From positions 425,001-489,000 of the forward strand of contig NZ_AP024907.1 in assembly GCF_024347135.1 (NCBI RefSeq): DNA of 64,000 nucleotides, written 5' to 3'. The notes beneath the pieces were generated by a model that had not been told where the DNA came from, did not search any database, and saw nothing but the letters and a program-made list of their open reading frames with translations. Positions 14,162-60,498 of the stretch are shown here, in pieces; the stretch's first letter is position 1, and each line of letters starts with the position of its first letter. This DNA comes from Vibrio spartinae. Its GTDB lineage: Bacteria > Pseudomonadota > Gammaproteobacteria > Enterobacterales > Vibrionaceae. The position numbers and the translations under genes are program-made.

Positions 14162-14824
14162 CTACAAAGAGACCTCAGTCTGGTCTGGGTTCAGCTTAAT
14201 GGCCGTTTGCTGACGATCCGTAAAGACATTGGTATGAATTTCATGTGAGCGTGGGAAATGGCTAAACCACTGGGTAGAGAGATGATCCAACTTTCCGCTA
14301 TCCCGGCAGGTATATGTGTATTGAATTGAGAAGGCGGTATGTGTGCCATGCTCATGCTCATCACCGTCATGATGATGTTCTTCATGATGGTCTGCATCTT
14401 CATCGTGATCATGATGATGTCCGCTTTCATGGGCGCCGGCATCATGGTCATGATGTTCATGTTCATGTTCATGTTCATGTTCATGTTCGTGATCATGATG
14501 GTGAGCCGTTTGACGGACATTGCTATGTTCCAGTGTACAGCCAGCCGCTGAGTTGATGGTGATGAGGTCATCGGCTTGTTCCAGCAGTGCCATCGCTTGA
14601 TCGAGCGCTTGATGCTCCTGATCCGTTTGTGGCGGATGCTCAAAACCGACGACATCCATTCCCGGTGCCGTGATTTCAACTAATAATGCATCAGCATCCT
14701 GAGCAATATTCATTTCGACAACGCCGTGAACATGTGCTTCGTGCTGACGAAAACCTTCTTCAGCTTGTGCGGATACTGCTGTTATGAGCCCTGCAAGTAG
14801 TGCAAGGTTATGTATTTTTAACAT
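14162..14824 (-). CDS. DUF2796 His-rich periplasmic zinc-binding protein
   Basis: This 220-residue exported protein starts at ATG 14824 (MLKIHNLALLAGLITA), with signal cleavage near SAQAEEG. The mature N-terminus RQHEAHVHGVVEMNIAQD is the DUF2796 hallmark. In the middle lies an extraordinary His/Glu/Asp stretch (HHHDHEHEHEHEHEHEHHDHD and a second HHHDHDEDADHHEEHHHDGD), a low-affinity metal-binding arm like those in ZnuA and ZrgA-type proteins. It should capture zinc in the periplasm and pass it to the transporter. It lies 32 bases upstream of the ATPase gene. In DNA, the His-Glu run is a perfect hexamer tandem repeat (14453-14488). Confidence 0.9.
   Translation of the reverse strand: MLKIHNLALLAGLITAVSAQAEEGFRQHEAHVHGVVEMNIAQDADALLVEITAPGMDVVGFEHPPQTDQEHQALDQAMALLEQADDLITINSAAGCTLEHSNVRQTAHHHDHEHEHEHEHEHEHHDHDAGAHESGHHHDHDEDADHHEEHHHDGDEHEHGTHTAFSIQYTYTCRDSGKLDHLSTQWFSHFPRSHEIHTNVFTDRQQTAIKLNPDQTEVSL
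14453..14488. repeat. Six perfect copies of ATGTTC, encoding the His-Glu run
   Basis: The + strand reads six uninterrupted ATGTTC units, which on the minus strand encode alternating His and Glu in the DUF2796 protein. A unit of six keeps the frame, so gain or loss of copies would only lengthen or shorten the metal-binding arm. Confidence 0.9.
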
Positions 14825-14941
14825 GAAAAAAACTCCGTCGTTGAGATGATTTAAATACAATTCATGATAAAACCTCGGTCTGGGGCGGTGTCCGATTGAA
14901 TGCAGTGATCACTTTATTTTTGATCGTGGCCGATTTGAGAG

Positions 14942-14970
14942 CCGTTCCGTCTATCGTGAAAGCGGAACGG
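14942..14970. repeat. Perfect 8-bp inverted repeat between two zinc-cluster genes
   Basis: CCGTTCCG (14942-14949) and CGGAACGG (14963-14970) form a hairpin with a 13-base loop in the 234-base gap between the DUF2607-like gene and the DUF2796 gene. No clean T-run follows on the minus strand, so it could be a weak attenuator, an mRNA processing site or a protein-binding site. No other clear element is seen in this gap. Confidence 0.5.
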
Positions 14971-15058
14971 GTCTAAAAATCATGAGCCGTCTGCAAATCG
15001 TGACACAGCAAAACCTGCCTGATATATCACACAGGGTGAGGATGTCCCGAATTGAGGT

Positions 15059-15373
15059 TTACTGAACGACTAGCGGAGGTGAGCGCGCAAAATAAGCTAA
15101 AAACGGCAGGCTTATTCTGATGATTTCAGACGTCGGCTCGCTATATCCGTGAGACGCGATAACCGGCAGAATCAGCGCAGAAGATTGAATGGCATGGTGA
15201 ATCCCGGCAAATAGCTGACAGTCATGGTGCTGATGATGCACGGCCAATGTGTCAGCTTGATGAATAATGTAAGCCGCGCTGAGCCAAAGCATCAAAAAGA
15301 TGGCCGCAAGGGCAACCATCTTTCTGGGGAGACGAGTCATTGGGGGACGAATCGTTTTACTGGCAGCCAACAT
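15059..15373 (-). CDS. Small His-rich membrane protein, DUF2607-like, first gene of the zinc cluster
   Basis: This 104-residue protein has a basic N-terminus and one hydrophobic helix (MVALAAIFLMLWLSAAYIIH). A His/Cys segment, HHQHHDCQLFAGIHHAIQSS, follows just after it, then a second hydrophobic stretch near the C-terminus. It matches, from memory, the DUF2607 family found in Vibrio. The His-rich segment next to the membrane suggests zinc binding. Its start (15373) lies 17 bases after a perfect Zur operator, so it should be the first gene derepressed under zinc starvation. Internal ATGs at 15340 and 15319 are possible alternative starts. Confidence 0.75.
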   Translation of the reverse strand: MLAASKTIRPPMTRLPRKMVALAAIFLMLWLSAAYIIHQADTLAVHHQHHDCQLFAGIHHAIQSSALILPVIASHGYSEPTSEIIRISLPFLAYFARSPPLVVQ

Positions 15374-15390
15374 GGGACATCCGCAATGAA

Positions 15391-15421
15391 TGGGAAAATG
15401 TTATAATATAACATTTTCCCA
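15391..15421 (-). promoter_or_regulatory. Zur operator: 31-bp perfect palindrome
   Basis: Two perfect 15-base arms (tgggaaaatgttata and its reverse complement) flank one central base. The core GAAAATGTTATA-A-TATAACATTTTC matches the known enterobacterial Zur box (GAAATGTTATANTATAACATTTC) at almost every position. It contains TATAAT-like sequence, so bound Zur would cover the promoter. It sits immediately before the DUF2607-like gene and implies zinc repression of the whole minus-strand cluster. Confidence 0.9.
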
Positions 15422-15459
15422 CGGGTGCAAGTCTTATTCGTATCGCGGTCAGCAATCGC

Positions 15460-16089
15460 TCACAGTGGCATGAAGCAAACGCCTGTCCCTGCGAGTCCGC
15501 AATAACCTTCCGGATTTTTTGCCAGATATTGCTGGTGGTCACTTTCCGCAAAGTAATAAGGCCCGGCAGAGAGGATCTCCGTGGTGATTTGCCCTTTGCC
15601 CTCACTATTCAATGATTTTTGGTAGGTTTGTCGCGAATGTTCGGCGATCAAGCGCTGTTTATCATGATAAACATAGATGACTGAACGGTACTGTGTGCCG
15701 AGATCATTGCCCTGACGCATGCCTTGCGTTGGGGTGTGATTTTCCCAAAAGTAACCCAACAGTGTTTCCAGCGAAATTTGTTGCGGTTGATAAATCACCC
15801 GCACGACTTCGGCATGGCCGGTTTGACCGGTACATACTTCTTCATAGATTGGATTCGGTGTATATCCGCCCGAGTAACCGACCGACGTCGAAATGACACC
15901 GGGAAGTTGCCAGAACAGTCTTTCCGCACCCCAGAAACAGCCCATTCCGAGCAATATTTTTTGTTGACCTTTTTCTGGCTCAGCCGTAAGACGGGAGTGA
16001 TTCACGAAATGACTGTCTTCTATTTCAAGGGGGGTGAAACGGCCTTTCAGAGCGGTTGCTTCTGTAACCATCTGTTGTTTGTCTGACAT
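15460..16089 (-). CDS. msrA: Peptide methionine (S)-S-oxide reductase
   Basis: MsrA reduces methionine-S-sulfoxide in oxidised proteins. The 209-residue protein has the catalytic [13 protein letters not shown] motif with the reactive Cys, then [44 protein letters not shown] and the AEDYHQQYL-like [16 protein letters not shown]-terminal Cys (GTGVCFMPL) can serve as resolving residue. An extra 40-residue N-terminal part is as in the E. coli enzyme. It lies upstream of the Zur operator and is probably transcribed separately. Confidence 0.96.
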
Positions 16090-32463: not shown

Positions 32464-33336
32464 ATGCTATCCCCTCAAGAACGCGCAGCAATCAAACAAG
32501 ATATTCAATCCAACCAGCATGAAATCTACGTCATCTCTTTTGAAGAGATGGATAATATTGTGAAATCTTCACCTCATGCTTATTCGAAGACCGTGAAAGA
32601 TACCTGGAAGAAACTCAGAGTCAGAGCTGGAGACGGGGTAAACTGGTATGCTACGGCTGATGATAGCCTAACCCTTGTCAAACTGATTAGTGATTTGGGC
32701 GGTATTGGTACCAAAGCTTATATAAAGACCTATGGTGGTAAACCACATATTATTTTAAAGGGTAATCCTCGTCTGAGAACTGTGCTGACTGGGACAAAAT
32801 ATGGGGTGAACAATGCCAAGGTCGTAACAATGGGTTTAGGAAAGGCGGCAGCAATCAGCGGTGCGAAAGCTGGTGGTGTACTTTCTGTTATTTTAATGAG
32901 TGCCTATCGAATTGCCGATTATGTTTTAACCGATGAAATCACTTTATCTCGATTAATTGGCTCTTTGGCAACCGATGTGGTGAAGATTGGGATTGTTACT
33001 GGGGCTTCTATTGCTTTTGCTTGTGCTGCCGGGGGACTTACTTTTGCGATAGGACCTCTTGCCGTTGTTGTTGCTGTCGGTATCTTTGGTAACCTAGCTC
33101 TAGGTTATTTGGATGATTACTATGGTATTACAGATAAAGTGGTTGCTGCTTTAGATGAGATAAGTAATGGGATTAATTCATATACCTATAGAGCGAAACA
33201 TCAATTTGAAGATAAAATGGTTCAAACAATGGGAACGGTGATTGATTATATATTAGATTCGGCTGAACAAATGGCCATCGATTTTGCTAAACATTCAATT
33301 GTTCGGTTTTTATCTCCACGGCCGAGAGCTTATTGA
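32464..33336 (+). CDS. Putative pore-forming (colicin-like) type VI effector
   Basis: This 290-residue protein starts at ATG 32464 (MLSPQERAAIKQD) after AAGGAAT; the frame extends further upstream without family support. No signal peptide is present. The N-terminal 85 residues are soluble and charged. A basic KTYGGKPHIILKG / NPRLRTVLTGTKYGVNN segment (about 88-117) leads to a glycine-rich stretch (GLGKAAAISGAKAGG). A long hydrophobic hairpin follows at about 166-214, with Gly/Ala spacing like a glycine zipper. It reads like a membrane-inserting toxin domain. The overlapping membrane-protein gene and the hcp gene suggest a type VI secreted effector. The toxin call is inference; I know no exact family name. 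Confidence 0.6.
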   Translation: MLSPQERAAIKQDIQSNQHEIYVISFEEMDNIVKSSPHAYSKTVKDTWKKLRVRAGDGVNWYATADDSLTLVKLISDLGGIGTKAYIKTYGGKPHIILKGNPRLRTVLTGTKYGVNNAKVVTMGLGKAAAISGAKAGGVLSVILMSAYRIADYVLTDEITLSRLIGSLATDVVKIGIVTGASIAFACAAGGLTFAIGPLAVVVAVGIFGNLALGYLDDYYGITDKVVAALDEISNGINSYTYRAKHQFEDKMVQTMGTVIDYILDSAEQMAIDFAKHSIVRFLSPRPRAY

Positions 33337-33338
33337 TA

Positions 33339-33812
33339 ATGAAAGGGAAAACCAATATTCTTAATTTAATTTTTGTTTCATTGCTCTCTACTGCTTTAGC
33401 TATATTTGGTTTTGTTTATTTTTATTCAGCCTCAAATGATTTGTTTCACAGTATCAATAACTTGTCTCCGGTTATTCAGTATCAGCGTGGTGCTATGTAT
33501 GGTTTGGGTGGTGGTATTTCATTTTCTTGCCTGGTGATTACTTTTTCTATTCTTATTTTTTATAAAAAAATTCCATTTAAAATAGAAAAGAAACTCATGA
33601 AAATATTTTTTACTGGGCTCGTGTTAATGTTAGTTGTTCCTGTTTTAACCGGGATTATAATACCTCATATTATTGAAGGGAAGGGCTATCAACGCTGTGA
33701 AAAAGCAGAACGCCGAGCATCGTGGCCAATATTTCGTATTCATATCTATACCGATAATCGACAAGTCTGTGAACAATTAATCGAAGAAAAGCAACAATCC
33801 GGCAGATATTAA
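33339..33812 (+). CDS. Putative membrane immunity protein for the preceding effector
   Basis: This 157-residue protein starts at ATG 33339, two bases after the effector stop, so the pair is translationally coupled. Three membrane helices are visible: LIFVSLLSTALAIFGFVYFY, GGISFSCLVITFSILIFY and IFFTGLVLMLVVPVLTGIII. A C-terminal periplasmic or cytoplasmic tail carries GYQRCEKAERRASWP and YTDNRQVCEQLIEEK with two cysteines. This Cys layout recalls DUF1240-type membrane proteins (weak, from memory). An inner-membrane partner next to a pore-forming toxin is the usual design of immunity proteins. The sequence is more AT-rich than the core genes around it. Confidence 0.55.
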   Translation: MKGKTNILNLIFVSLLSTALAIFGFVYFYSASNDLFHSINNLSPVIQYQRGAMYGLGGGISFSCLVITFSILIFYKKIPFKIEKKLMKIFFTGLVLMLVVPVLTGIIIPHIIEGKGYQRCEKAERRASWPIFRIHIYTDNRQVCEQLIEEKQQSGRY

Positions 33813-53345: not shown

Positions 53346-54533
53346 TTAATAAGACTCTACAATTTCAACTGGTTTTTCCGAACGTTTATATGACAAATTC
53401 GTTGTGAAAACTGCGATTAAACAACAAATGACACCAATGAAAAATGCATACTGATATGAGTAATAATGGATGACTAGGCTACCAATTAAACCTGCGATCA
53501 ATATACCAATATCAAAACAGGCTTCGTAAGTGCTTATCGCTATACCAATGTTTTCCTTTGGTAGACTATTAATTGCGACAACTGCTAGCAGTGGATAAAC
53601 CATAGACAGACCGAAACCACAGAGAAAAGATCCAGCAATAGAAATGTATGGACTGTATTGTAGGCTCAAGAGCACTAATCCTAGCGATTCAACCGCTAAA
53701 AAAGTAATACAAGATACTTTCCCTGCTTTATCTGCCATCCAGCCAAATATTAGTCGAGATATAACATATCCAATACCAAAACAAGATAATGCTAAAGCAC
53801 CAAATTTACTCCATCCTAAATCAATGAAATTAACCAATAGATAAGAGGTTATAAGAGAATATCCCACATTAGCTAATACAAAACTACTACCAGAAGGCCA
53901 TATTTTTTTTACAGCAATAGAGAGAGATATAACATTCTTATTTTCTTTTGTTTCAATCGCAGGAATAGTTAAACAGACTAGCAAAGAGAGTAGAGGTAAT
54001 ACCAAAATTGTTGCTGCTGAGTATTCAAGACCGATCGTTTCATAACTCCATGCGCCATAATAGTTTCCCAAAGCGAGACCGAGAAACATTGCTATACCTA
54101 CCCATGACATGATTTTTCCCGCATGTTCATGACCAATTAAGCCTATAGGCCATGTACCACCGCAAGTAAAAACAAAACTCAGGCCTATACCCATTAATAT
54201 CCTTGATATAATTATAATTGAGTAACTTAAAATAATATCTTCAGAAAGGTTATATATGGTAATAAAACATAGCAATCCAGAGGCCGTAAGTAATGAGAGA
54301 CCTAAAAGCATACCATACTTAGGTCCTTTTTTATCAGATATTTTTCCTGATATAAATCTTGATAATAGAGTTGATAATGACTCCGTTATAACCGCTAAAC
54401 CGATGAAAATTGCCGAAAGCTCTAATGACTCTTTTATAAAAAGAGGAAGTATGGCAAGTGATATACCTAAAGAAACAATAGAGAAAAATATCAAAGAAGA
54501 TACTTTTATAGCATTTAAATAATTATTACTCAT
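53346..54533 (-). CDS. MFS transporter, last gene of the putative nucleoside-metabolite operon
   Basis: This 395-residue protein has about twelve membrane helices. The major facilitator motif A is present between helices 2 and 3 (SRFISGKISDKKGPKYGM) and again between 8 and 9 (SRLIFGWMADKAGKVS). RILMGIGLSFVFTCGG resembles the proton-coupled motif C/B region of small-molecule efflux pumps (YhhS/YfcJ-like). No substrate can be read from the sequence. Its gene overlaps the formyltransferase gene by one base, so it belongs to the same transcript. It is best explained as an exporter or self-resistance pump for the operon's product. Codon use is AT-rich, unlike the neighbouring core genes. Confidence 0.8.
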   Translation of the reverse strand: MSNNYLNAIKVSSLIFFSIVSLGISLAILPLFIKESLELSAIFIGLAVITESLSTLLSRFISGKISDKKGPKYGMLLGLSLLTASGLLCFITIYNLSEDIILSYSIIIISRILMGIGLSFVFTCGGTWPIGLIGHEHAGKIMSWVGIAMFLGLALGNYYGAWSYETIGLEYSAATILVLPLLSLLVCLTIPAIETKENKNVISLSIAVKKIWPSGSSFVLANVGYSLITSYLLVNFIDLGWSKFGALALSCFGIGYVISRLIFGWMADKAGKVSCITFLAVESLGLVLLSLQYSPYISIAGSFLCGFGLSMVYPLLAVVAINSLPKENIGIAISTYEACFDIGILIAGLIGSLVIHYYSYQYAFFIGVICCLIAVFTTNLSYKRSEKPVEIVESY

Positions 54534-55171
54534 TACTTTCCTATGTATAACAGTGATTCATTAATTTCAGAATGATAAACAATATTCGTTCCATCAAAAG
54601 AAATTTTACCTGATGTGATCAACCGGATTGCTTGAGGAATGAGATACTTTTCTGTATTTGTAATTTTTTTTCTCAGTTCTGACTCCTGAGTTCCCATTTT
54701 AACCTCAATAATACTTTGAGCAATGATTGGTCCTTGGTCAACTTCATTATTGATGAAATGAACAGTTGCTCCGCTGCATCTGACCCCATAATCGATAGCA
54801 GATTGTTGTGCTTTATCTCCCGGAAATGATGGTAATATAGATGGATGGGTGTTAATTGTGATGCATCCAAACTTTTTCACAAAATTCTGAGAGAAAATAC
54901 GTCTGTACCCCCCTAAGACAATGAGATGAATATCGTTATCCATCAAAAGCTCTTCAATGGCACTCTCATGTTCTAATCGATTTTGATAGTTAGCATGATC
55001 GATTATATGAAATTCAGTACCTTTCGGGATATGAAGCTTATCAAGGTCAACATCTCTGTTGTTTGATATAACTAACTTCAAATGACAGTTATTAATTAGA
55101 TCTGAACATAATTCAGAGACAGATTCTAACAAACTTCCACTTCCCGAAAATAAAAAAGCAATGTTATTCAT
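54533..55171 (-). CDS. PurN-like formyltransferase of the AT-rich operon
   Basis: This 212-residue protein has the fold and length of glycinamide ribonucleotide formyltransferase. It begins IAFLFSGSGSLLESV. The catalytic Asn107 and His109 are in INTHPSILPSFPGDKAQ and the catalytic Asp145 is in VHFINNEVDQGPIIAQ, almost the same numbering as E. coli PurN. It should therefore use 10-formyl-tetrahydrofolate to formylate an amine. The GAR-binding region is diverged, so the acceptor is probably not GAR. It lies two bases after the amidohydrolase gene. Role in the pathway is inferred. Confidence 0.82.
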   Translation of the reverse strand: MNNIAFLFSGSGSLLESVSELCSDLINNCHLKLVISNNRDVDLDKLHIPKGTEFHIIDHANYQNRLEHESAIEELLMDNDIHLIVLGGYRRIFSQNFVKKFGCITINTHPSILPSFPGDKAQQSAIDYGVRCSGATVHFINNEVDQGPIIAQSIIEVKMGTQESELRKKITNTEKYLIPQAIRLITSGKISFDGTNIVYHSEINESLLYIGK

Positions 55172-55173
55172 TG

Positions 55174-56433
55174 TTACATCCTTTCTATAAAATTAAAGTT
55201 TTCGACTAATTGCTGGCCATTAATAAAAACATGCTTAGGGTGTTTGTTAAACATATTTACTATGAATTTATTTATATCAGGTGTTTTGTTGTTTATTTTA
55301 TATGGTTCTTCATCATTATAAATAATAATATCTGCTGAAAATCCTTCTTTGATTAAACCACAGTTTTTGAAACCTAAACAATGAGCACCATTGATGGTAA
55401 CCATATCAATTAGCTTTTCTGGATTAATTTTATTATGTAATTCATCTGTACCATGATGGTATAAAGCAAATATGGTATCTTGCACGATTGAATTTGAGGG
55501 ATTGACCATTGCTGCATCTGTCCCTAAGGAGATACTATTTTTTAGCTTGGATACTGGGAGAGTTCCAGCACCAACAAAACTATTGCTAATTGGACAATGG
55601 ATAACTTTCGTTTCTGGTTTTTGGTTGATGATGTTTATATCATCTTCATTCAAATAACAATTATGTATAAGATTGATATGACTGTCTAATAAACCAAGTG
55701 AATTTAATCGTTTAATTCCTGACTTTCCAAAATGTTCAATACATTGGTTGTACTGATGCTGTCCTTCATTTATATGCAATGAAATAAAAGAATTGTATTC
55801 TTTAGCTAGATTATTTAGAGCAATAAGAAGCTCATCCGAACATGAAATTTCTGATGCTGTTGCCGGAGATACAGTGATAGTATCACGACTATACCTTGAA
55901 TAAGTATCATGAAATTGGTTTAAAATGCTTTCTTTATTTTGAATAACTGGTACGGACTCTTTGCCAACCCATGTGTCATTAACAGCATATTGTATGTTTG
56001 CCCTTACTCCTAAACTTAGAGCAGCTTCGGCATCAATATTTGCTCTGCTTGTAAATATGCCTATACCTGTAACACCACTTAAAATTTGCTTCTTCAATGA
56101 TGATATACTTGAATTAAATTGTAATTCTTCTGTTTCAGAAGAATTGTTTTTATGAACTGCGTCTAAAACATTACTTATTGAGTCATATACAGAGTACCCA
56201 CAATACATATCTTTACTGGGATGTATATGAGAGTTTGTGTATCCTGGCTGTGCGTAACAATCAGAAGCATCCAAAACAGCATAGCCTTCTTGGATTATTT
56301 CAGACACATGATCTATTTTTGAGATCTTTCCAGATGATATATATATATTTCCACGAACGAATTCTTTATTTTCGTTAAAGTAATTAACATTTTTTAAGCA
56401 AGTTTTTCTACTTCCTGAACTATATTTTTCCAT
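55174..56433 (-). CDS. Metal-dependent amidohydrolase (deaminase-like) of the AT-rich operon
   Basis: This 419-residue amidohydrolase belongs to the cytosine/guanine/atrazine deaminase type. A small beta-domain surrounds the TIM barrel. The metal ligands are visible: His69 and His71 in YTNSHIHPSKD, His220 in SLHINEGQHQY, His257 in NLIHNCYL, and Asp306 in SLGTDAAMVNPSNS. The C-terminus has the usual KEGFSADIIIYNDEEP. It should hydrolyse an amine or amide on a ring, for example deaminating a modified pyrimidine, but the substrate is not shown. Its start overlaps the phosphatase gene by 40 bases; an internal ATG further downstream is not needed by the family. Confidence 0.82.
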   Translation of the reverse strand: MEKYSSGSRKTCLKNVNYFNENKEFVRGNIYISSGKISKIDHVSEIIQEGYAVLDASDCYAQPGYTNSHIHPSKDMYCGYSVYDSISNVLDAVHKNNSSETEELQFNSSISSLKKQILSGVTGIGIFTSRANIDAEAALSLGVRANIQYAVNDTWVGKESVPVIQNKESILNQFHDTYSRYSRDTITVSPATASEISCSDELLIALNNLAKEYNSFISLHINEGQHQYNQCIEHFGKSGIKRLNSLGLLDSHINLIHNCYLNEDDINIINQKPETKVIHCPISNSFVGAGTLPVSKLKNSISLGTDAAMVNPSNSIVQDTIFALYHHGTDELHNKINPEKLIDMVTINGAHCLGFKNCGLIKEGFSADIIIYNDEEPYKINNKTPDINKFIVNMFNKHPKHVFINGQQLVENFNFIERM

Positions 56434-57062
56434 TTTAATTTACCATCTGAAAAGAACTTATTTCTATCAATATATATCGTTTTCATACCCAAGTTTTGAG
56501 GTGTTAAAATGTCATTTTTTAATGAATCTCCTATCATGATGACTTCGTTTGCTTTTAGGCTTTCATTCCTTAATATTTTTTCAAATAAATAACGGTTGGG
56601 TTTATTAAAAGGATACTCTGTTCCATAATAGAAAGAATCGAAAAAATGATGCATATTGTTTTTTTTCATCTTTGCAACTTGAATTTCTTCTTTCCCATTT
56701 GTGCATAAAGAAAGAGAGTAACTTTCTCTAAGTGTTTCTAATAAATGATCAGATCCAGAGTATGTATGTGAGTTGTTTAAATAGCAGTCTATATAGAGTT
56801 TGTGAGTTTCATTGAATGGGAGATGAATTAATTGACTTACGTATTCACTTCGAAGGTTCAAAACTGAATCTATATTTAATTTTCCTTGCTCAAAATGAGA
56901 CCAAAGATCACTTGATCTTACTTTTGTTTTTGTTACAAATTCTTCAAATGATAGGTCTGAGTTATTATTTGATTGAAATATATCAATTAATGTTCTTTTT
57001 TCAGCAAATGAATGATTAATTAAGGTATCATCTAGGTCAAAAATTAATTTTTTAATAGTCAT
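56394..57062 (-). CDS. HAD-family phosphatase, YjjG-like 5'-nucleotidase
   Basis: This 222-residue haloacid dehalogenase-like enzyme has the nucleophile Asp9 and Asp11 in LIFDLDDTLINH, motif II Thr in LSLCTNGKEE, the Lys of motif III in NKPNRYLFEKIL and motif IV in IMIGDSLKNDI. An LW-x-x-F-x-x-G-containing alpha-helical cap is like YjjG, a pyrimidine 5'-nucleotidase that acts on non-canonical nucleotides. In the operon it would dephosphorylate a modified nucleoside monophosphate. It overlaps the DUF84 gene by 11 bases. The substrate is inferred from family and context. Confidence 0.82.
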   Translation of the reverse strand: MTIKKLIFDLDDTLINHSFAEKRTLIDIFQSNNNSDLSFEEFVTKTKVRSSDLWSHFEQGKLNIDSVLNLRSEYVSQLIHLPFNETHKLYIDCYLNNSHTYSGSDHLLETLRESYSLSLCTNGKEEIQVAKMKKNNMHHFFDSFYYGTEYPFNKPNRYLFEKILRNESLKANEVIMIGDSLKNDILTPQNLGMKTIYIDRNKFFSDGKLKWKNIVQEVEKLA

Positions 57063-57618
57063 GATTTTTTTCGTTGATTAGATATCCCAGAGATGTGAGT
57101 AAAGCTGTATTAAACTCGTCAACACGAGTAAATGCTTCATTTGTGATAACACCATTTGTTCCTATGGTATTGATTTTATCTTGTGGAATTTCAGAATACA
57201 TTTCTTTTATTACATCAGAAAGCTCTTGATCTTTGTTTATTCTTTTTACTATAGTTTCAGGAATTTTTACTTTCGCACTACAGCCATAAGCATTTCTGCT
57301 TTTTTTAAGATCTTCAATCTTTACCCATCCATATACAAAATGTCCGAAGCTATAATGATTAATTAAACCTTCCATCGATACTAGATAATCATAATCTTTC
57401 TCAATGTCATTTAAAGATGTTTTGCAATTTTTTATTCTATTTTCAATACCTAATATTGCTTCTTCATCATTAATTGGAGTTTTGGATATATCTGACTTCA
57501 CTTCTACGGAGTGAAAGATTATTTCTTTATCCTTGAATATTGAAGAGAAAACTTGTTTTACCGATTCATTTTTAGCAATATTTTTGGATAGAACTAAAAC
57601 ATTTATATTATTCTGCAT
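57052..57618 (-). CDS. DUF84/YjjX-like NTP pyrophosphatase of the AT-rich operon
   Basis: This 188-residue protein is related to YjjX (inosine/xanthosine triphosphatase) of the DUF84 family. It shows a VLVLSKNIAKNESVKQVF start, then HSVEVKSDISKTPINDEEAILGIENRIKNC, YLVSMEGLINHY (the acidic metal site) and GWVKIEDLK, and ends with NTIGTNGVITNEAFTRVDEF. It should cleave a non-canonical NTP to NMP + PPi (house-cleaning). In this operon the natural substrate may be the triphosphate of the modified pyrimidine. The gene overlaps both neighbours by 11 bases. Confidence 0.82.
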   Translation of the reverse strand: MQNNINVLVLSKNIAKNESVKQVFSSIFKDKEIIFHSVEVKSDISKTPINDEEAILGIENRIKNCKTSLNDIEKDYDYLVSMEGLINHYSFGHFVYGWVKIEDLKKSRNAYGCSAKVKIPETIVKRINKDQELSDVIKEMYSEIPQDKINTIGTNGVITNEAFTRVDEFNTALLTSLGYLINEKNHDY

Positions 57619-58477
57619 GCTGTGTTACCCATTGAATAAAATTAGTCTCATTTGTACCGTTATAAATGTCATTCAATAGTGATTTATAATTGGATATGAC
57701 TGGCATAACACAAGAAATATCTGGTTTTCCCATTTTTAATATATCGACTGCTTTATCAAATGTTTTATCATATATTTGTGTGAAAGTTGTCTTCATAATC
57801 GTTTCACCAAGTATTATGTTTTCATAACTTTCTTCTTTTAGTATGCAATACACAAGCTCATGAATAAATGAGAAAAAACCTATATCATAAGGTAATCCAG
57901 TGATTACATCTGTACTTCTTGAAGATACCTCACAATATAATTTATTATTTTTTATATAAAACATGATGGCAATTGTACATGGGAAGTCTTTTGTATCAGA
58001 TTTGTGATAATTCTGATTGATATTAATAATTGCTCTTCTGGAGTCCGGGTTTTTGATAAGCATTTTTATAACCCAATCTAATTGACTCTCATAACTATCT
58101 ACTTGTTCGTAAAAAACATAGTATCCATAGTTTGAATTAATATTTCCATTCTCGTCAACTAAAGTTGTCCAAAATTTGGAGGCTTTAGATAAGCCGTCAT
58201 CAGCATTCAGACTTCCTTTAAAGTATGCAATGAACTCATTGCATAGATATTTTAATGCACCTTCTCTTAAAGAGTGAACTCTATTTCTTGGGTTACTTAA
58301 AATGTAGTTCACGCCATAACATTGAAGCGCATCACCTGCTCTTGTTTTAACTTTGTTACCATGGTTAATGATATGGAGTACAGCTTTCTTTACTAAGCCA
58401 TCGACAGAACTATCATTGATGTTAACAATGTCAAGTTTGGTATTTTGGGGTTCATTTAATTCTGAGGAAACACTCAT
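57608..58477 (-). CDS. Thymidylate-synthase-family enzyme with cytidylate-hydroxymethylase signature
   Basis: From ATG 58477 (MSVSSELNEPQNTK) this is 289 residues; an ATG at 58531 would add an 18-residue hydrophobic tail that the soluble family lacks, but it cannot be excluded. The thymidylate synthase fold is clear: catalytic Glu81 (YLCNEFIAYFKG), KFWTTLVDENGN ahead of YG, Arg147-Arg148 (PDSRRAII), catalytic Cys167 (KDFPCTIAIMFY), and RSTDVITGLPYDIG. The Asn that selects uracil is Asp198, as in dCMP/CMP hydroxymethylases. The His-x-Tyr that grips deoxyribose is replaced (GETIMKTTF). It should add a one-carbon unit to C5 of a cytidine nucleotide. First gene of the operon. Confidence 0.85.
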   Translation of the reverse strand: MSVSSELNEPQNTKLDIVNINDSSVDGLVKKAVLHIINHGNKVKTRAGDALQCYGVNYILSNPRNRVHSLREGALKYLCNEFIAYFKGSLNADDGLSKASKFWTTLVDENGNINSNYGYYVFYEQVDSYESQLDWVIKMLIKNPDSRRAIININQNYHKSDTKDFPCTIAIMFYIKNNKLYCEVSSRSTDVITGLPYDIGFFSFIHELVYCILKEESYENIILGETIMKTTFTQIYDKTFDKAVDILKMGKPDISCVMPVISNYKSLLNDIYNGTNETNFIQWVTQHAE

Positions 58478-58720
58478 AATACATACGCTTAAATTTATGA
58501 TGAAAATGAGGATAGCATAAAAATAATTCATGATATTATTTTTTATATTATTATCACACTTGTGCTAATTAAATCTCATTTAAGGCTTTTGTTAATGTTT
58601 TTTTTGTTATTTGTGATTGGATATTTATATTCACTAAATTTATAACGTTTGATTTTTGAACAGTTCTATCTGGGTTATAAGATCTTTAATGAATATTTTT
58701 TATAAATATGTAGGCTAGTT

Positions 58721-58771: not shown

Positions 58772-60148
58772 TTAGAAGTATGTTTCTGTGAATTCAGCAA
58801 GTGAGCTTCTTTCTACTTCATCAAAGATGAGAATAGAACCTTTTTCATAGTTTTTATAAACATTGACCGCTGCGGATAAACCACTGGATGCGGCACTCAC
58901 AAACTTATCGTCAATCTGACTCAGATTGCCAAGTAATATCGTTCTACAATTTTTTCCGCCTCTGCTCAGCATTCCTTTGACTTGCGCACGAGTCATATTC
59001 TGTGCTTCATCTATGATTAAAACGGCATCGTCAAGCGAGCGGCCTCTGAAGTAAGCCATACTGGTAAATTCAATATTAGCCCGCTCGATAATGTGCTCGA
59101 CTGTTTCGTGGACATTACAGTCCTCACCTTCGCCTGAATGCATGGATACAAGCGCATCAGTGATACCGACCATGAGCGGGAGAGATTTCTCTTTTAAGTC
59201 ACCGGGTAAAAAGCCCGGATCGTCATCCATAAAATCCCGGCTTCTGACCACGACAATTTTTTTATATTGCTTTGTTTCGATCACTTGATGTAATGCGGCT
59301 GCGACCGCTAGGAATGTTTTTCCTGATCCCGCAGGGCCAAGCATAATATTCAGGTCATAATTGGGGTCGGTTAACTGATTTAATGCAATGGCTTGCCTTT
59401 GATTTTTAGGGCTGATACCCCAGACCCTTCCCTGTTTTTTCGGTAAAAGTTTGGTGATGACATGTGTGGGGGTTACTTGTGTCACAACCCCGATATGATT
59501 TTCATCATCAAACCAGTACATATTTCTTTGAACGTCTTCATTAAATAAATGGCGATCGAATTGATAACAATCTCCGGATAGTTTGAAATCTTTATCCGTC
59601 TCTATCCGATTAAATAAATCACCTTCAAAATATTGCACTCCGGAATAAAGTAAGTCGATGTCGGTAATTTGATTATCAATCGGAACATCTTCGGAGAATA
59701 CGCCAATCGTCCGAGCTTTCAGTCGCATATTGATATCACGGCTGACCAACGACACATCTCTGCCGAGCTTTTTCTGTAATTGGAATGCGAAATTAATAAT
59801 ATGGTTATCCGCATCACTACCAATACCGTGACGAAGGGATTCTTCGACTTCAATATTGGTATCTACAGCAATGAATAATTTACCTCTTTTACCGATTTCA
59901 CTCGATGGCAGTTCAATTCCTGCTTGTAATTCTTCTGCATTATGACCATTGACTAAATCTTCGAGCATTCGTATACAGACGCGAGCATCGGCACTGACTG
60001 ATTTTTCTCTGCGTTCTTTTAGATTGTCCAGTTCTTCGAGTACGGTTAAACAAATATAAACATCATCTTGATATGCGAGTAAACTTTTCGGGTCGTGGAC
60101 TAATGCTGAAGTATCTAAAACTCGGGGGGTGTTGGTTCTTGATATCAT
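58772..60148 (-). CDS. PhoH-family ATPase with N-terminal PIN domain
   Basis: This 458-residue protein has a PIN nuclease-like domain at about residues 9-150 (RVLDTSALVHDPKSLLAYQ, TVLEELDNL, the DAD and SRD acidic residues). The C-terminal PhoH/RNA-helicase-like ATPase domain follows. Walker A is LGPAGSGKTFLAVAAAL at about 271, and Walker B is VLIIDEAQNMT. Relatives of this PIN-PhoH type are thought to act on RNA. Compared with the consensus the sequence is diverged in several blocks (RSRDFMDDDPGFLPGDLKEK). A degraded second PIN copy lies directly upstream. It stands apart from the AT-rich operon, and its own composition is closer to core genes. Confidence 0.9.
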   Translation of the reverse strand: MISRTNTPRVLDTSALVHDPKSLLAYQDDVYICLTVLEELDNLKERREKSVSADARVCIRMLEDLVNGHNAEELQAGIELPSSEIGKRGKLFIAVDTNIEVEESLRHGIGSDADNHIINFAFQLQKKLGRDVSLVSRDINMRLKARTIGVFSEDVPIDNQITDIDLLYSGVQYFEGDLFNRIETDKDFKLSGDCYQFDRHLFNEDVQRNMYWFDDENHIGVVTQVTPTHVITKLLPKKQGRVWGISPKNQRQAIALNQLTDPNYDLNIMLGPAGSGKTFLAVAAALHQVIETKQYKKIVVVRSRDFMDDDPGFLPGDLKEKSLPLMVGITDALVSMHSGEGEDCNVHETVEHIIERANIEFTSMAYFRGRSLDDAVLIIDEAQNMTRAQVKGMLSRGGKNCRTILLGNLSQIDDKFVSAASSGLSAAVNVYKNYEKGSILIFDEVERSSLAEFTETYF

Positions 60149-60198: not shown

Positions 60199-60498
60199 TT
60201 ATCCAATGATTTCATCTCTGCCGTGAGAGAACAGGCACTGCGTTTTGAAGGTCTGTATCGTTCGAATGTATTGTCCTTTTTGACACCGATAGTTTCTTTT
60301 CTGGTATTGAGAGTCCGAAGCACGGATTGTGACCTGAGTATCCCATGTGGTATCAGGTTTACCGTCTTGAATTCGATTGAGTTCTGAAGAGGGGATTGGA
60401 AGGGGCACATCATGTTGCTGGAAGGAATAAATTGCCAGCGGTTCAGGGGGGAGGATATTGTTATCCAAGACAAATCGTTTCCGGTCAGTATCGCCCAT
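60199..60498 (-). pseudogene. Remnant of a second PIN-PhoH gene (N-terminus only)
   Basis: A frame starts at ATG 60498 behind a perfect AAGGAGACGC ribosome site and reads MGDTDRKRFVLDNNILPPEP, then LAIYSFQQHDVPLPIPSSELNRIQDG and TQVTIRA. This aligns with the PIN N-terminus of the neighbouring gene (VLDTSALVHDP, VLEELDNLKE, ARVCIR) and with other PhoH proteins. The conserved DTN motif has become DNN, and after about 70 residues the homology ends in unrelated sequence with no ATPase domain. The intact start and site show it was once a full gene. Confidence 0.65.

What the first reader, a model, noticed from the sequence alone, without database searches (positions are those of the whole stretch)
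53346..58531. Undescribed six-gene operon for a modified pyrimidine metabolite
Six minus-strand genes overlap or nearly touch: TS-like enzyme, DUF84 NTPase, HAD 5'-nucleotidase, amidohydrolase, PurN-like formyltransferase, MFS exporter. All are far more AT-rich than the flanking core genes argF and rapA. Seen: the families, key residues and overlaps. Known: TS-like enzymes with the Asn-to-Asp change start several nucleoside-antibiotic routes (mildiomycin MilA, bacimethrin BcmA). Inferred: CMP or dCMP is hydroxymethylated at C5, the nucleotide is stripped of phosphates, the ring is deaminated or hydrolysed, an amine is formylated, and the product is exported. No methyltransferase or nucleosidase is present, so this is not simply bacimethrin. 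I know of no system with this exact set.
Basis: partly seen in the sequence, partly recalled or inferred. Interest (0 to 1): 0.92.

Follow-up and report, generated by a model that had tools for sequence, protein, structure and literature searches.

The report
Mobile operon for modified pyrimidine nucleoside
A six-gene cassette in a Vibrio-like bacterium recurs, with small changes, on plasmids and chromosomes of distant bacteria, and looks like a compact recipe for making, surviving and exporting an unknown mimic of a DNA building block that could act as an antibiotic.

Summary
The six genes are real, tightly packed and AT-rich (GC 27-34% against 48% in argF and rapA). They look acquired: in two of six relatives read, only phoH lies between argF and rapA. 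The set is conserved: 12 of 22 loci with a relative of the TS-like gene carry DUF84 and the amidohydrolase beside it, 8 the PurN-like gene, 9 the MFS gene. Hosts include E. coli and Salmonella plasmids (one a 5.7 kb record with no other annotated gene), Erwinia, Edwardsiella and Thermoactinomycetes. The TS-like enzyme has cytosine-type active-site residues (Asp for Asn177, Thr for His147) and lacks MilA's CMP-specific Ala/Lys, so dCMP is the likelier substrate. The PurN-like clade lost the Asn of the GAR phosphate loop. Best reading: a mobile cluster that makes, detoxifies (DUF84 as triphosphatase self-resistance, like ThmC of 4'-thiothymidine), dephosphorylates, tailors and exports a 5-hydroxymethyl-pyrimidine deoxynucleoside. 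The capping enzyme may be exchangeable (formyl, carbamoyl, amino-acid ligase). Product, amidohydrolase step and formyl acceptor are inferred. Ten searches of an open-licence library found no description of this set.

The parts
57608..58477 (-). TS-like enzyme, predicted dCMP (or CMP) C5-hydroxymethylase, 289 aa; Cys167 catalytic, Asp198 at the Asn177 position, Thr168 at the His147 position, Ser188/Arg147 as in T4 dCMP hydroxymethylase, Gln234 at the His207/216 position
   Evidence: an ATG at 58531 is also open but 289-aa homologues start at 58477
57052..57618 (-). DUF84 / NTPase_I-T (YjjX-like) nucleoside triphosphatase, proposed self-resistance/house-cleaning enzyme; overlaps the TS gene by 11 bp, as in nine proteobacterial copies
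56394..57062 (-). HAD phosphatase, YjjG-like (below cut-off); proposed nucleotidase. Matched in 3 of 12 related cassettes, one of them broken
55174..56433 (-). TRZ/ATZ-type amidohydrolase with intact residues H69, H71, H220, E223, H257, D306; proposed (deoxy)nucleoside deaminase
54533..55171 (-). PurN-like formyltransferase with catalytic N107, H109, D145 kept but GAR phosphate-loop Asn replaced by Leu; proposed capping enzyme
53346..54533 (-). MFS transporter (PRK05122-like, 343 bits against cut-off 374), proposed exporter
58772..60148 (-). divergent PhoH-like gene (37-40% identical to the PhoH of six relatives), possibly arrived with the cassette
60301..60498 (-). decayed 5' remnant of the native phoH gene (54% over 67 aa)

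Best explanation
A horizontally spread biosynthetic cassette for an exported pyrimidine (deoxy)nucleoside antimetabolite. The TS-like enzyme adds a hydroxymethyl group to C5 of dCMP (less likely CMP). DUF84 destroys the modified triphosphate formed by host kinases, so that it does not enter the producer's DNA or RNA (self-resistance). The HAD enzyme, or a host nucleotidase where HAD is absent, removes the phosphate. The amidohydrolase hydrolyses an amino group of the nucleoside, most simply 5-hydroxymethyl-deoxycytidine to 5-hydroxymethyl-deoxyuridine. The PurN-like enzyme puts a formyl cap on the product, and the MFS protein exports it. SHOWN here: the gene set, its recurrence and patchy spread, active-site residues, predicted folds. 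INFERRED: every reaction, the order, the product and its toxicity. Step confidences: C5-hydroxymethylation of a cytosine nucleotide 0.85; deoxy rather than ribo 0.65; DUF84 as self-resistance 0.6; amidohydrolase as deaminase of the nucleoside 0.45; formyl cap 0.5; exported antimicrobial 0.55.
For: Conserved unit: DUF84 and amidohydrolase beside the TS-like gene in 12 of 22 loci. The amidohydrolase clade occurs on 4 plasmid records of 72,556 at E<=1e-40, the same 4 that hold the close TS-like gene (58-60% identical). Shared contig lengths between protein searches: TS/amidohydrolase 18, TS/PurN 8, amidohydrolase/PurN 11, against 0.125 or fewer expected. Active site: Asp198 38/38, Thr168 37/38, Ser188 38/38, Arg147 38/38. 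The best PDB sequence hit is T4 dCMP hydroxymethylase; the best fold matches are MilA and T4 dCMP hydroxymethylase. A triphosphatase-type partner recurs outside the cassette: a NUDIX gene sits directly behind the TS-like gene in 7 of the 10 remaining loci (two tested by profile). Precedent: in the thmA-C cluster a triphosphatase alone gives self-resistance to 4'-thiothymidine (PMC12691670 section 7). Vehicle: a 5.7 kb E. coli record has only five annotated genes, all from this set, and parts of the rest match small rop/mob plasmids.
Confidence: 0.6

Rival explanations
1. A base-level antivitamin cluster: hydroxymethylated CMP is cut to a free hydroxymethyl-pyrimidine that poisons thiamin synthesis, as bacimethrin does.
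For: TS-like first step shared with bacimethrin and mildiomycin routes; a formylated or deaminated pyrimidine base could mimic HMP.
Against: No nucleosidase, methyltransferase, thiaminase or ThiD/ThiM among the window's six genes or among the annotated cassette genes of the four plasmids; flanking genes of the eight genome loci were not all named. MilA-type CMP residues absent.
Confidence: 0.12
2. An anti-phage or nucleotide-pool system: modified dCTP or depleted dCMP interferes with phage DNA synthesis, and the NTPase limits self-damage.
For: On plasmids and sporadic (1 of 296 genomes of the window's family; 3 of 5,426 E. coli genomes); TS-type genes are common in phages (1,123 of 50,697 records, all under 60% identity).
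Against: No PADLOC model matches any of the six proteins at E<=0.001; an exporter, amidohydrolase and formyltransferase are not needed for such a role; no amidohydrolase-clade match in 50,697 phage records at E<=1e-30.
Confidence: 0.1
3. Uptake and salvage or detoxification of modified nucleosides (for example from phage DNA), with the MFS protein as importer.
For: YjjG-like HAD, DUF84 and deaminase-type amidohydrolase are salvage or house-cleaning families.
Against: The TS-like enzyme would make rather than remove the modification; the EamA transporter in its place in Thermoactinomycetes matches exporter models such as YddG, below cut-off.
Confidence: 0.07
4. The pathway makes a non-toxic secreted signal or cofactor precursor from a modified pyrimidine.
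For: Nothing here shows toxicity; a divergent LysR regulator lies next to it in 4 of 12 loci.
Against: Dedicated triphosphatase, patchy spread between phyla and a minimal plasmid vehicle fit competition better (inference).
Confidence: 0.11

Closest known systems
thmA-C cluster for 4'-thiothymidine (Photorhabdus; PMC12691670, abstract and section 7 read)
   Same: Compact nucleoside antibiotic cluster, found by its authors in Enterobacterales and Vibrio, with its own nucleoside triphosphatase, shown there to give self-resistance
   Different: thm uses a radical SAM enzyme and a nucleoside kinase homologue; the cassette here has neither, and has TS-like, amidohydrolase, formyltransferase and exporter genes
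MilA (mildiomycin) and the bacimethrin cluster (PMC5175136 parts 1-2 of 5; PMC12345177 passages)
   Same: TS-superfamily enzyme starts the route from a cytosine nucleotide; MilA is the closest fold match
   Different: MilA's CMP-determining Ala176 and Lys133 are Ser and Arg here; no nucleosidase or methyltransferase among the six genes
T4-type dCMP hydroxymethylase, and 5hmC carbamoyltransferase of phages (PMC8670742, passages)
   Same: Asp at 177 and non-His at 147; a NodU/TobZ-type carbamoyltransferase gene precedes the TS-like gene in the Salmonella plasmid cassette
   Different: The phage systems modify DNA; here there is a transporter and no gene that looks like DNA modification; the Salmonella carbamoyltransferase frame is interrupted
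Housekeeping ThyA and PurN of the same genome
   Same: Families and catalytic residues (Cys167; N107/H109/D145)
   Different: Substrate-defining residues changed (Asn177 to Asp, His147 to Thr; GAR loop Asn to Leu); ThyA and PurN exist separately in the genome

Membership tests
Thymidylate synthase (ThyA) | Asn at position 177 (E. coli) for dUMP | tested here: not met
   Asp198 in 38 of 38
Thymidylate synthase (ThyA) | score over ThyA equivalog cut-offs | tested here: not met
   six models hit, best 68.1 bits against 327
dCMP hydroxymethylase (T4 gp42 type) | catalytic Cys, Asp at 177, non-His at 147, Ser and Arg at the sugar/phosphate site | tested here: met
dCMP hydroxymethylase (T4 gp42 type) | His216 contacting the sugar 3'-oxygen | tested here: not met
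   Gln234 in 38 of 38 by MAFFT alignment
dCMP hydroxymethylase (T4 gp42 type) | makes 5-hydroxymethyl-dCMP | not testable with these tools
   needs enzyme assay
MilA-type CMP hydroxymethylase | Ala176 and Lys133 for CMP preference | tested here: not met
   Ser188 and Arg147 in 38 of 38; positions equated through ThyA/T4 numbering given in PMC5175136
Bacimethrin cluster | methyltransferase and nucleosidase/thiamin genes beside the TS-like gene | tested here: not met
   none among the six window genes or the annotated cassette genes of four plasmids
DUF84 / inosine-xanthosine triphosphatase | Pfam NTPase_I-T over cut-off | tested here: met
   111.6 bits against 25
DUF84 / inosine-xanthosine triphosphatase | NCBIfam ITPase/XTPase equivalog cut-off | tested here: not met
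   95.7 against 175
PurN (GAR transformylase) | TIGR00639 cut-off and catalytic Asn-His-Asp | tested here: met
   153.1 against 150.1; N107, H109, D145 (their role is recalled)
PurN (GAR transformylase) | Asn of the GAR phosphate loop (role recalled, not from a call) | tested here: not met
   Leu in all 10 clade members aligned (10 of 30 listed hits), Asn in the genome's own PurN
TRZ/ATZ-type deaminase (cog0402 amidohydrolases) | HxH, His, Glu, His, Asp active site (motif recalled; alignment) | tested here: met
   26 of 26 aligned
MTA/SAH deaminase | curated equivalog cut-off | tested here: not met
   64.7 against 779; none of the 25 rows shown of 43 reaches its cut-off
thm (4'-thiothymidine) cluster | radical SAM enzyme beside the triphosphatase | tested here: not met
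   no radical SAM family among the six proteins

The most novel reading that the evidence does not exclude
An undescribed family of small-molecule 'nucleoside colicins': a 4-5 kb transferable cassette, found from Vibrio-like and enterobacterial hosts and plasmids to Bacillota, that turns dCMP into an exported 5-hydroxymethyl-pyrimidine nucleoside prodrug, carries a dedicated triphosphatase as immunity, and diversifies by swapping the capping enzyme (formyl-, carbamoyl- or amino-acid ligase-type).
Probability: 0.4. Interest if true: 0.88.

Novelty: new variant of a known kind. Interest (0 to 1): 0.74.

Why it matters
If right, some plasmids of enterobacteria carry a tiny nucleoside-antibiotic pathway that annotation labels as thymidylate synthase, inosine/xanthosine triphosphatase and PurN. 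It would add a dCMP-hydroxymethylase-first route to nucleoside natural products and a second case of triphosphatase immunity beside ThmC, and it can be tested directly in laboratory E. coli.

Tried and rejected
ThyA backup: rejected on Asn177/His147 residues and because a full ThyA exists (367 bits). Defence system: no PADLOC model. Structured RNA at the locus: no Rfam match at gathering thresholds in 50-64 kb. SOS control as in colicins: a CTGN10CAG site (consensus recalled) in 1 of 12 upstream regions, in Dickeya, matching 11 of 20 positions and 332 bp before the point used as gene start, which is uncertain there; no support. Phage cargo: no amidohydrolase-clade match in 50,697 phage records at E<=1e-30 nor in viral contigs (14 pattern matches, 0 relatives). 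DNA-level match of the window operon in E. coli genomes: none by megablast. Wider sampling of the order gave only the window genome (1 of 394 at E<=1e-40). A prophage paper (PMC6385640, passages) that matched terms proved irrelevant. Two paper searches were swamped by unrelated papers and say little. Insertion repeats around the window cassette: only short repeats that look like chance. A carbamoyltransferase contig (L084) was checked as a possible cassette: none of the six proteins matched it. The two-relative insertion argument is weaker than it could be: 4 of 6 relatives read have another arrangement beside argF.
Full report
WHAT IS THERE. Six minus-strand genes fill 53346-58477 of the window: TS-like (57608-58477), DUF84 (57052-57618), HAD (56394-57062), amidohydrolase (55174-56433), PurN-like (54533-55171) and MFS (53346-54533). 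Neighbours overlap by 11, 11, 40 and 1 bp, or are 2 bp apart (amidohydrolase/PurN). The TS-like ORF is open from 58531, but 289-aa homologues start at 58477. Gene GC is 27-34% against 48.2% for argF and 48.2% for rapA; the window profile shows the same dip.

FOREIGN BLOCK. Larger stretches around argF were read in six relatives. In two (G233, G656) the order is pyrB-argF-phoH-rapA without a break. In the other four another gene (it looks like arginine deiminase) lies before argF, and phoH and rapA are not in the stretch. In a first look, 9 of 30 argF stretches of about 4 kb held a PhoH-like gene. The window has pyrB-argF-[six genes]-divergent PhoH-like gene-decayed 5' end of the native phoH (60301-60498, 54% identity over 67 aa)-rapA. 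The divergent PhoH gene has no match at E<=1e-130 in the other 40 of 41 genomes searched. At E<=1e-40 the TS-like gene was found in 1 of 296 genomes of the window's family and 1 of 394 of its order, the window genome each time; the amidohydrolase at E<=1e-50 in 1 of 227 of the genus.

A RECURRING SET. Twenty-two loci with a relative of the TS-like gene were compared with the six proteins by tblastn at E<=1e-4: four plasmid records, the closest of 122 that matched, 14 genome contigs and four viral contigs. In 12 of 22 the TS-like gene (55-62% identical) is followed by DUF84 and the amidohydrolase; 8 of the 12 add the PurN-like gene, 9 the MFS gene, 3 the HAD gene. In the other 10 (43-51% identical) none of the five partners was found, though two of these contigs end within 1.2 kb after the gene. 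The 12 are not all independent: L005/L007 are nearly the same plasmid and L012-L014 are close relatives. The 11 bp TS/DUF84 overlap is the same in the window and in nine proteobacterial copies; Thermoactinomycetes have a short gap. In E. coli the cassette is rare: 2 of 5,426 genomes hold the version seen on IncK2/Z plasmids and 1 of 5,426 the 5.7 kb version. That record (NZ_CP075671, entered as linear) has five annotated genes, all from this set; about a seventh of its length or less matches many small plasmids with rop and mob genes, which I call ColE1-type from recall. In all eight proteobacterial loci measured the cassette is lower in GC than its flanks (32-41% against 41-60%); in Thermoactinomycetes it is about the same (42% against 42-45%).

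CO-OCCURRENCE BY OTHER MEANS. On plasmids the amidohydrolase clade appears on 4 records of 72,556 at E<=1e-40, the same 4 that carry the close TS-like gene. In the large protein database the amidohydrolase hits fall from E 9e-73 to 3e-31 with nothing between (list cut at 1e-30), and the PurN-like hits from 4e-36 to 2e-22 (cut at 1e-20). Named species overlap between the three searches: Bacillus, Lysinibacillus, Burkholderia, Pseudomonas, Xenorhabdus, Chelonobacter and Thermoactinomyces. Identical longest-contig lengths link TS and amidohydrolase 18 times, TS and PurN 8, amidohydrolase and PurN 11, against 0.125, 0 and 0.025 expected from near misses. A tree (midpoint root, for drawing only) puts Bacillus and Lysinibacillus sequences inside a supported group whose other named members are proteobacterial (96/92), and the NUDIX-linked sequences in a group of their own (100/97). 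This fits transfer between phyla.

TS-LIKE ENZYME. Sequence searches rank T4 dCMP hydroxymethylase first (E 9e-15 with one sequence, next a TS at 4e-14; 4e-22 with the profile, ahead of E. coli ThyA at 1e-15 and MilA at 9e-12). The predicted fold (mean pLDDT 90) is nearest MilA (TM 0.72-0.74 by query length) and T4 dCMP hydroxymethylase (0.65), with ordinary TS chains close behind. Aligned with the genome's ThyA and a T4-like hydroxymethylase, Asn177 is Asp198 and His147 is Thr168; these are the two top positions that separate TS proteins of cytosine-modified from unmodified contigs in PMC8670742 (passages). MilA prefers CMP because of Ala176 and Lys133; its A176S/K133R double change eliminated activity on CMP (PMC5175136, parts 1 and 2 of 5). 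The window enzyme and all 38 aligned relatives (38 of 120 listed) have Ser and Arg there, hence dCMP is favoured. Against this, the T4/MilA His216 is Gln in all 38.

VARIANTS. The Salmonella plasmid cassette has no PurN-like gene and is preceded by a NodU/TobZ-type carbamoyltransferase whose frame is interrupted; a phage enzyme of that family carbamoylates the 5-hydroxymethyl group of 5hmdCTP, not of 5hmdUTP (PMC8670742, passages). Three Thermoactinomycetes genomes have two loci each: TS-DUF84-amidohydrolase followed by two ATP-grasp genes (those of one genome tested: L-amino-acid-ligase type), and EamA transporter-HAD-second amidohydrolase-PurN-alpha/beta hydrolase. The capping step therefore looks exchangeable, but that these extra genes belong to the pathway is inference from position.

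MECHANISM. dCMP to 5-hydroxymethyl-dCMP (TS-like); stray triphosphate hydrolysed (DUF84); phosphate removed (HAD or host enzyme); amino group hydrolysed (amidohydrolase); formyl cap (PurN-like); export (MFS). Only the first step rests on substrate-determining residues; the rest is family knowledge and gene context. If the amidohydrolase removes the ring amine, the formyl group must go to the hydroxymethyl or sugar oxygen, or the order differs. This is the main open point.

NOVELTY. Ten full-text searches gave no paper describing the set, as far as titles, abstracts and the five papers opened show. The library holds only open-licence papers, two of the searches were unspecific, and subscription papers are missing. 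Nucleoside-antibiotic clusters starting with a TS-type hydroxymethylase are known, so I file this as a new variant of a known kind.

Noticed in passing
window 58772-60148 and 60301-60498: A divergent PhoH-like gene stands where relatives have phoH, and a decayed 5' end of the native phoH remains beside it.
   Followed up: partly
L010:8155-9064 and 14698-15612; L011:9141-9392 and 15221-15472: Direct repeats flank the cassette: 924 bp, 92% (a whole DJ-1/YajL-like gene by its look) in Edwardsiella; 252 bp, 97% (3' end of a transporter-like gene by its look) in Dickeya. With the phoH pair in the window this suggests integration by recombination at a carried gene copy. The other eight loci tested showed none beyond a 36 bp match.
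   Followed up: partly
G000:C1:1990380-1990958 (L003): A second TS-like gene (27% identical over 191 residues) in the same genome, beside a gene that looks like a TIR-domain protein.
   Followed up: no
L016-L018, L021-L024: TS-like plus NUDIX gene pair in seven contigs, one named as Dependentiae, three viral contigs with Microviridae-like genes (by their look); purpose unknown.
   Followed up: partly
L006:6342-7907: Carbamoyltransferase in the Salmonella plasmid is split by an in-frame stop.
   Followed up: no
L084 (MT837218): A human-gut 'phage' contig with a 52% identical carbamoyltransferase followed by an MFS-like gene (by its look), no TS-like gene; possibly another small metabolite cluster.
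   Followed up: partly
L005, L007, L008, L015: A divergent LysR regulator (59% identical between plasmid and chromosomal loci) lies next to the cassette in 4 of 12 loci, not in the window.
   Followed up: partly
window 33333-33812: Another AT-rich patch (GC 33%) with a small membrane-protein-like ORF.
   Followed up: no
L011:10076-11903: The Dickeya cassette looks degraded: the TS-like ORF lacks its start and HAD is in two frames.
   Followed up: no
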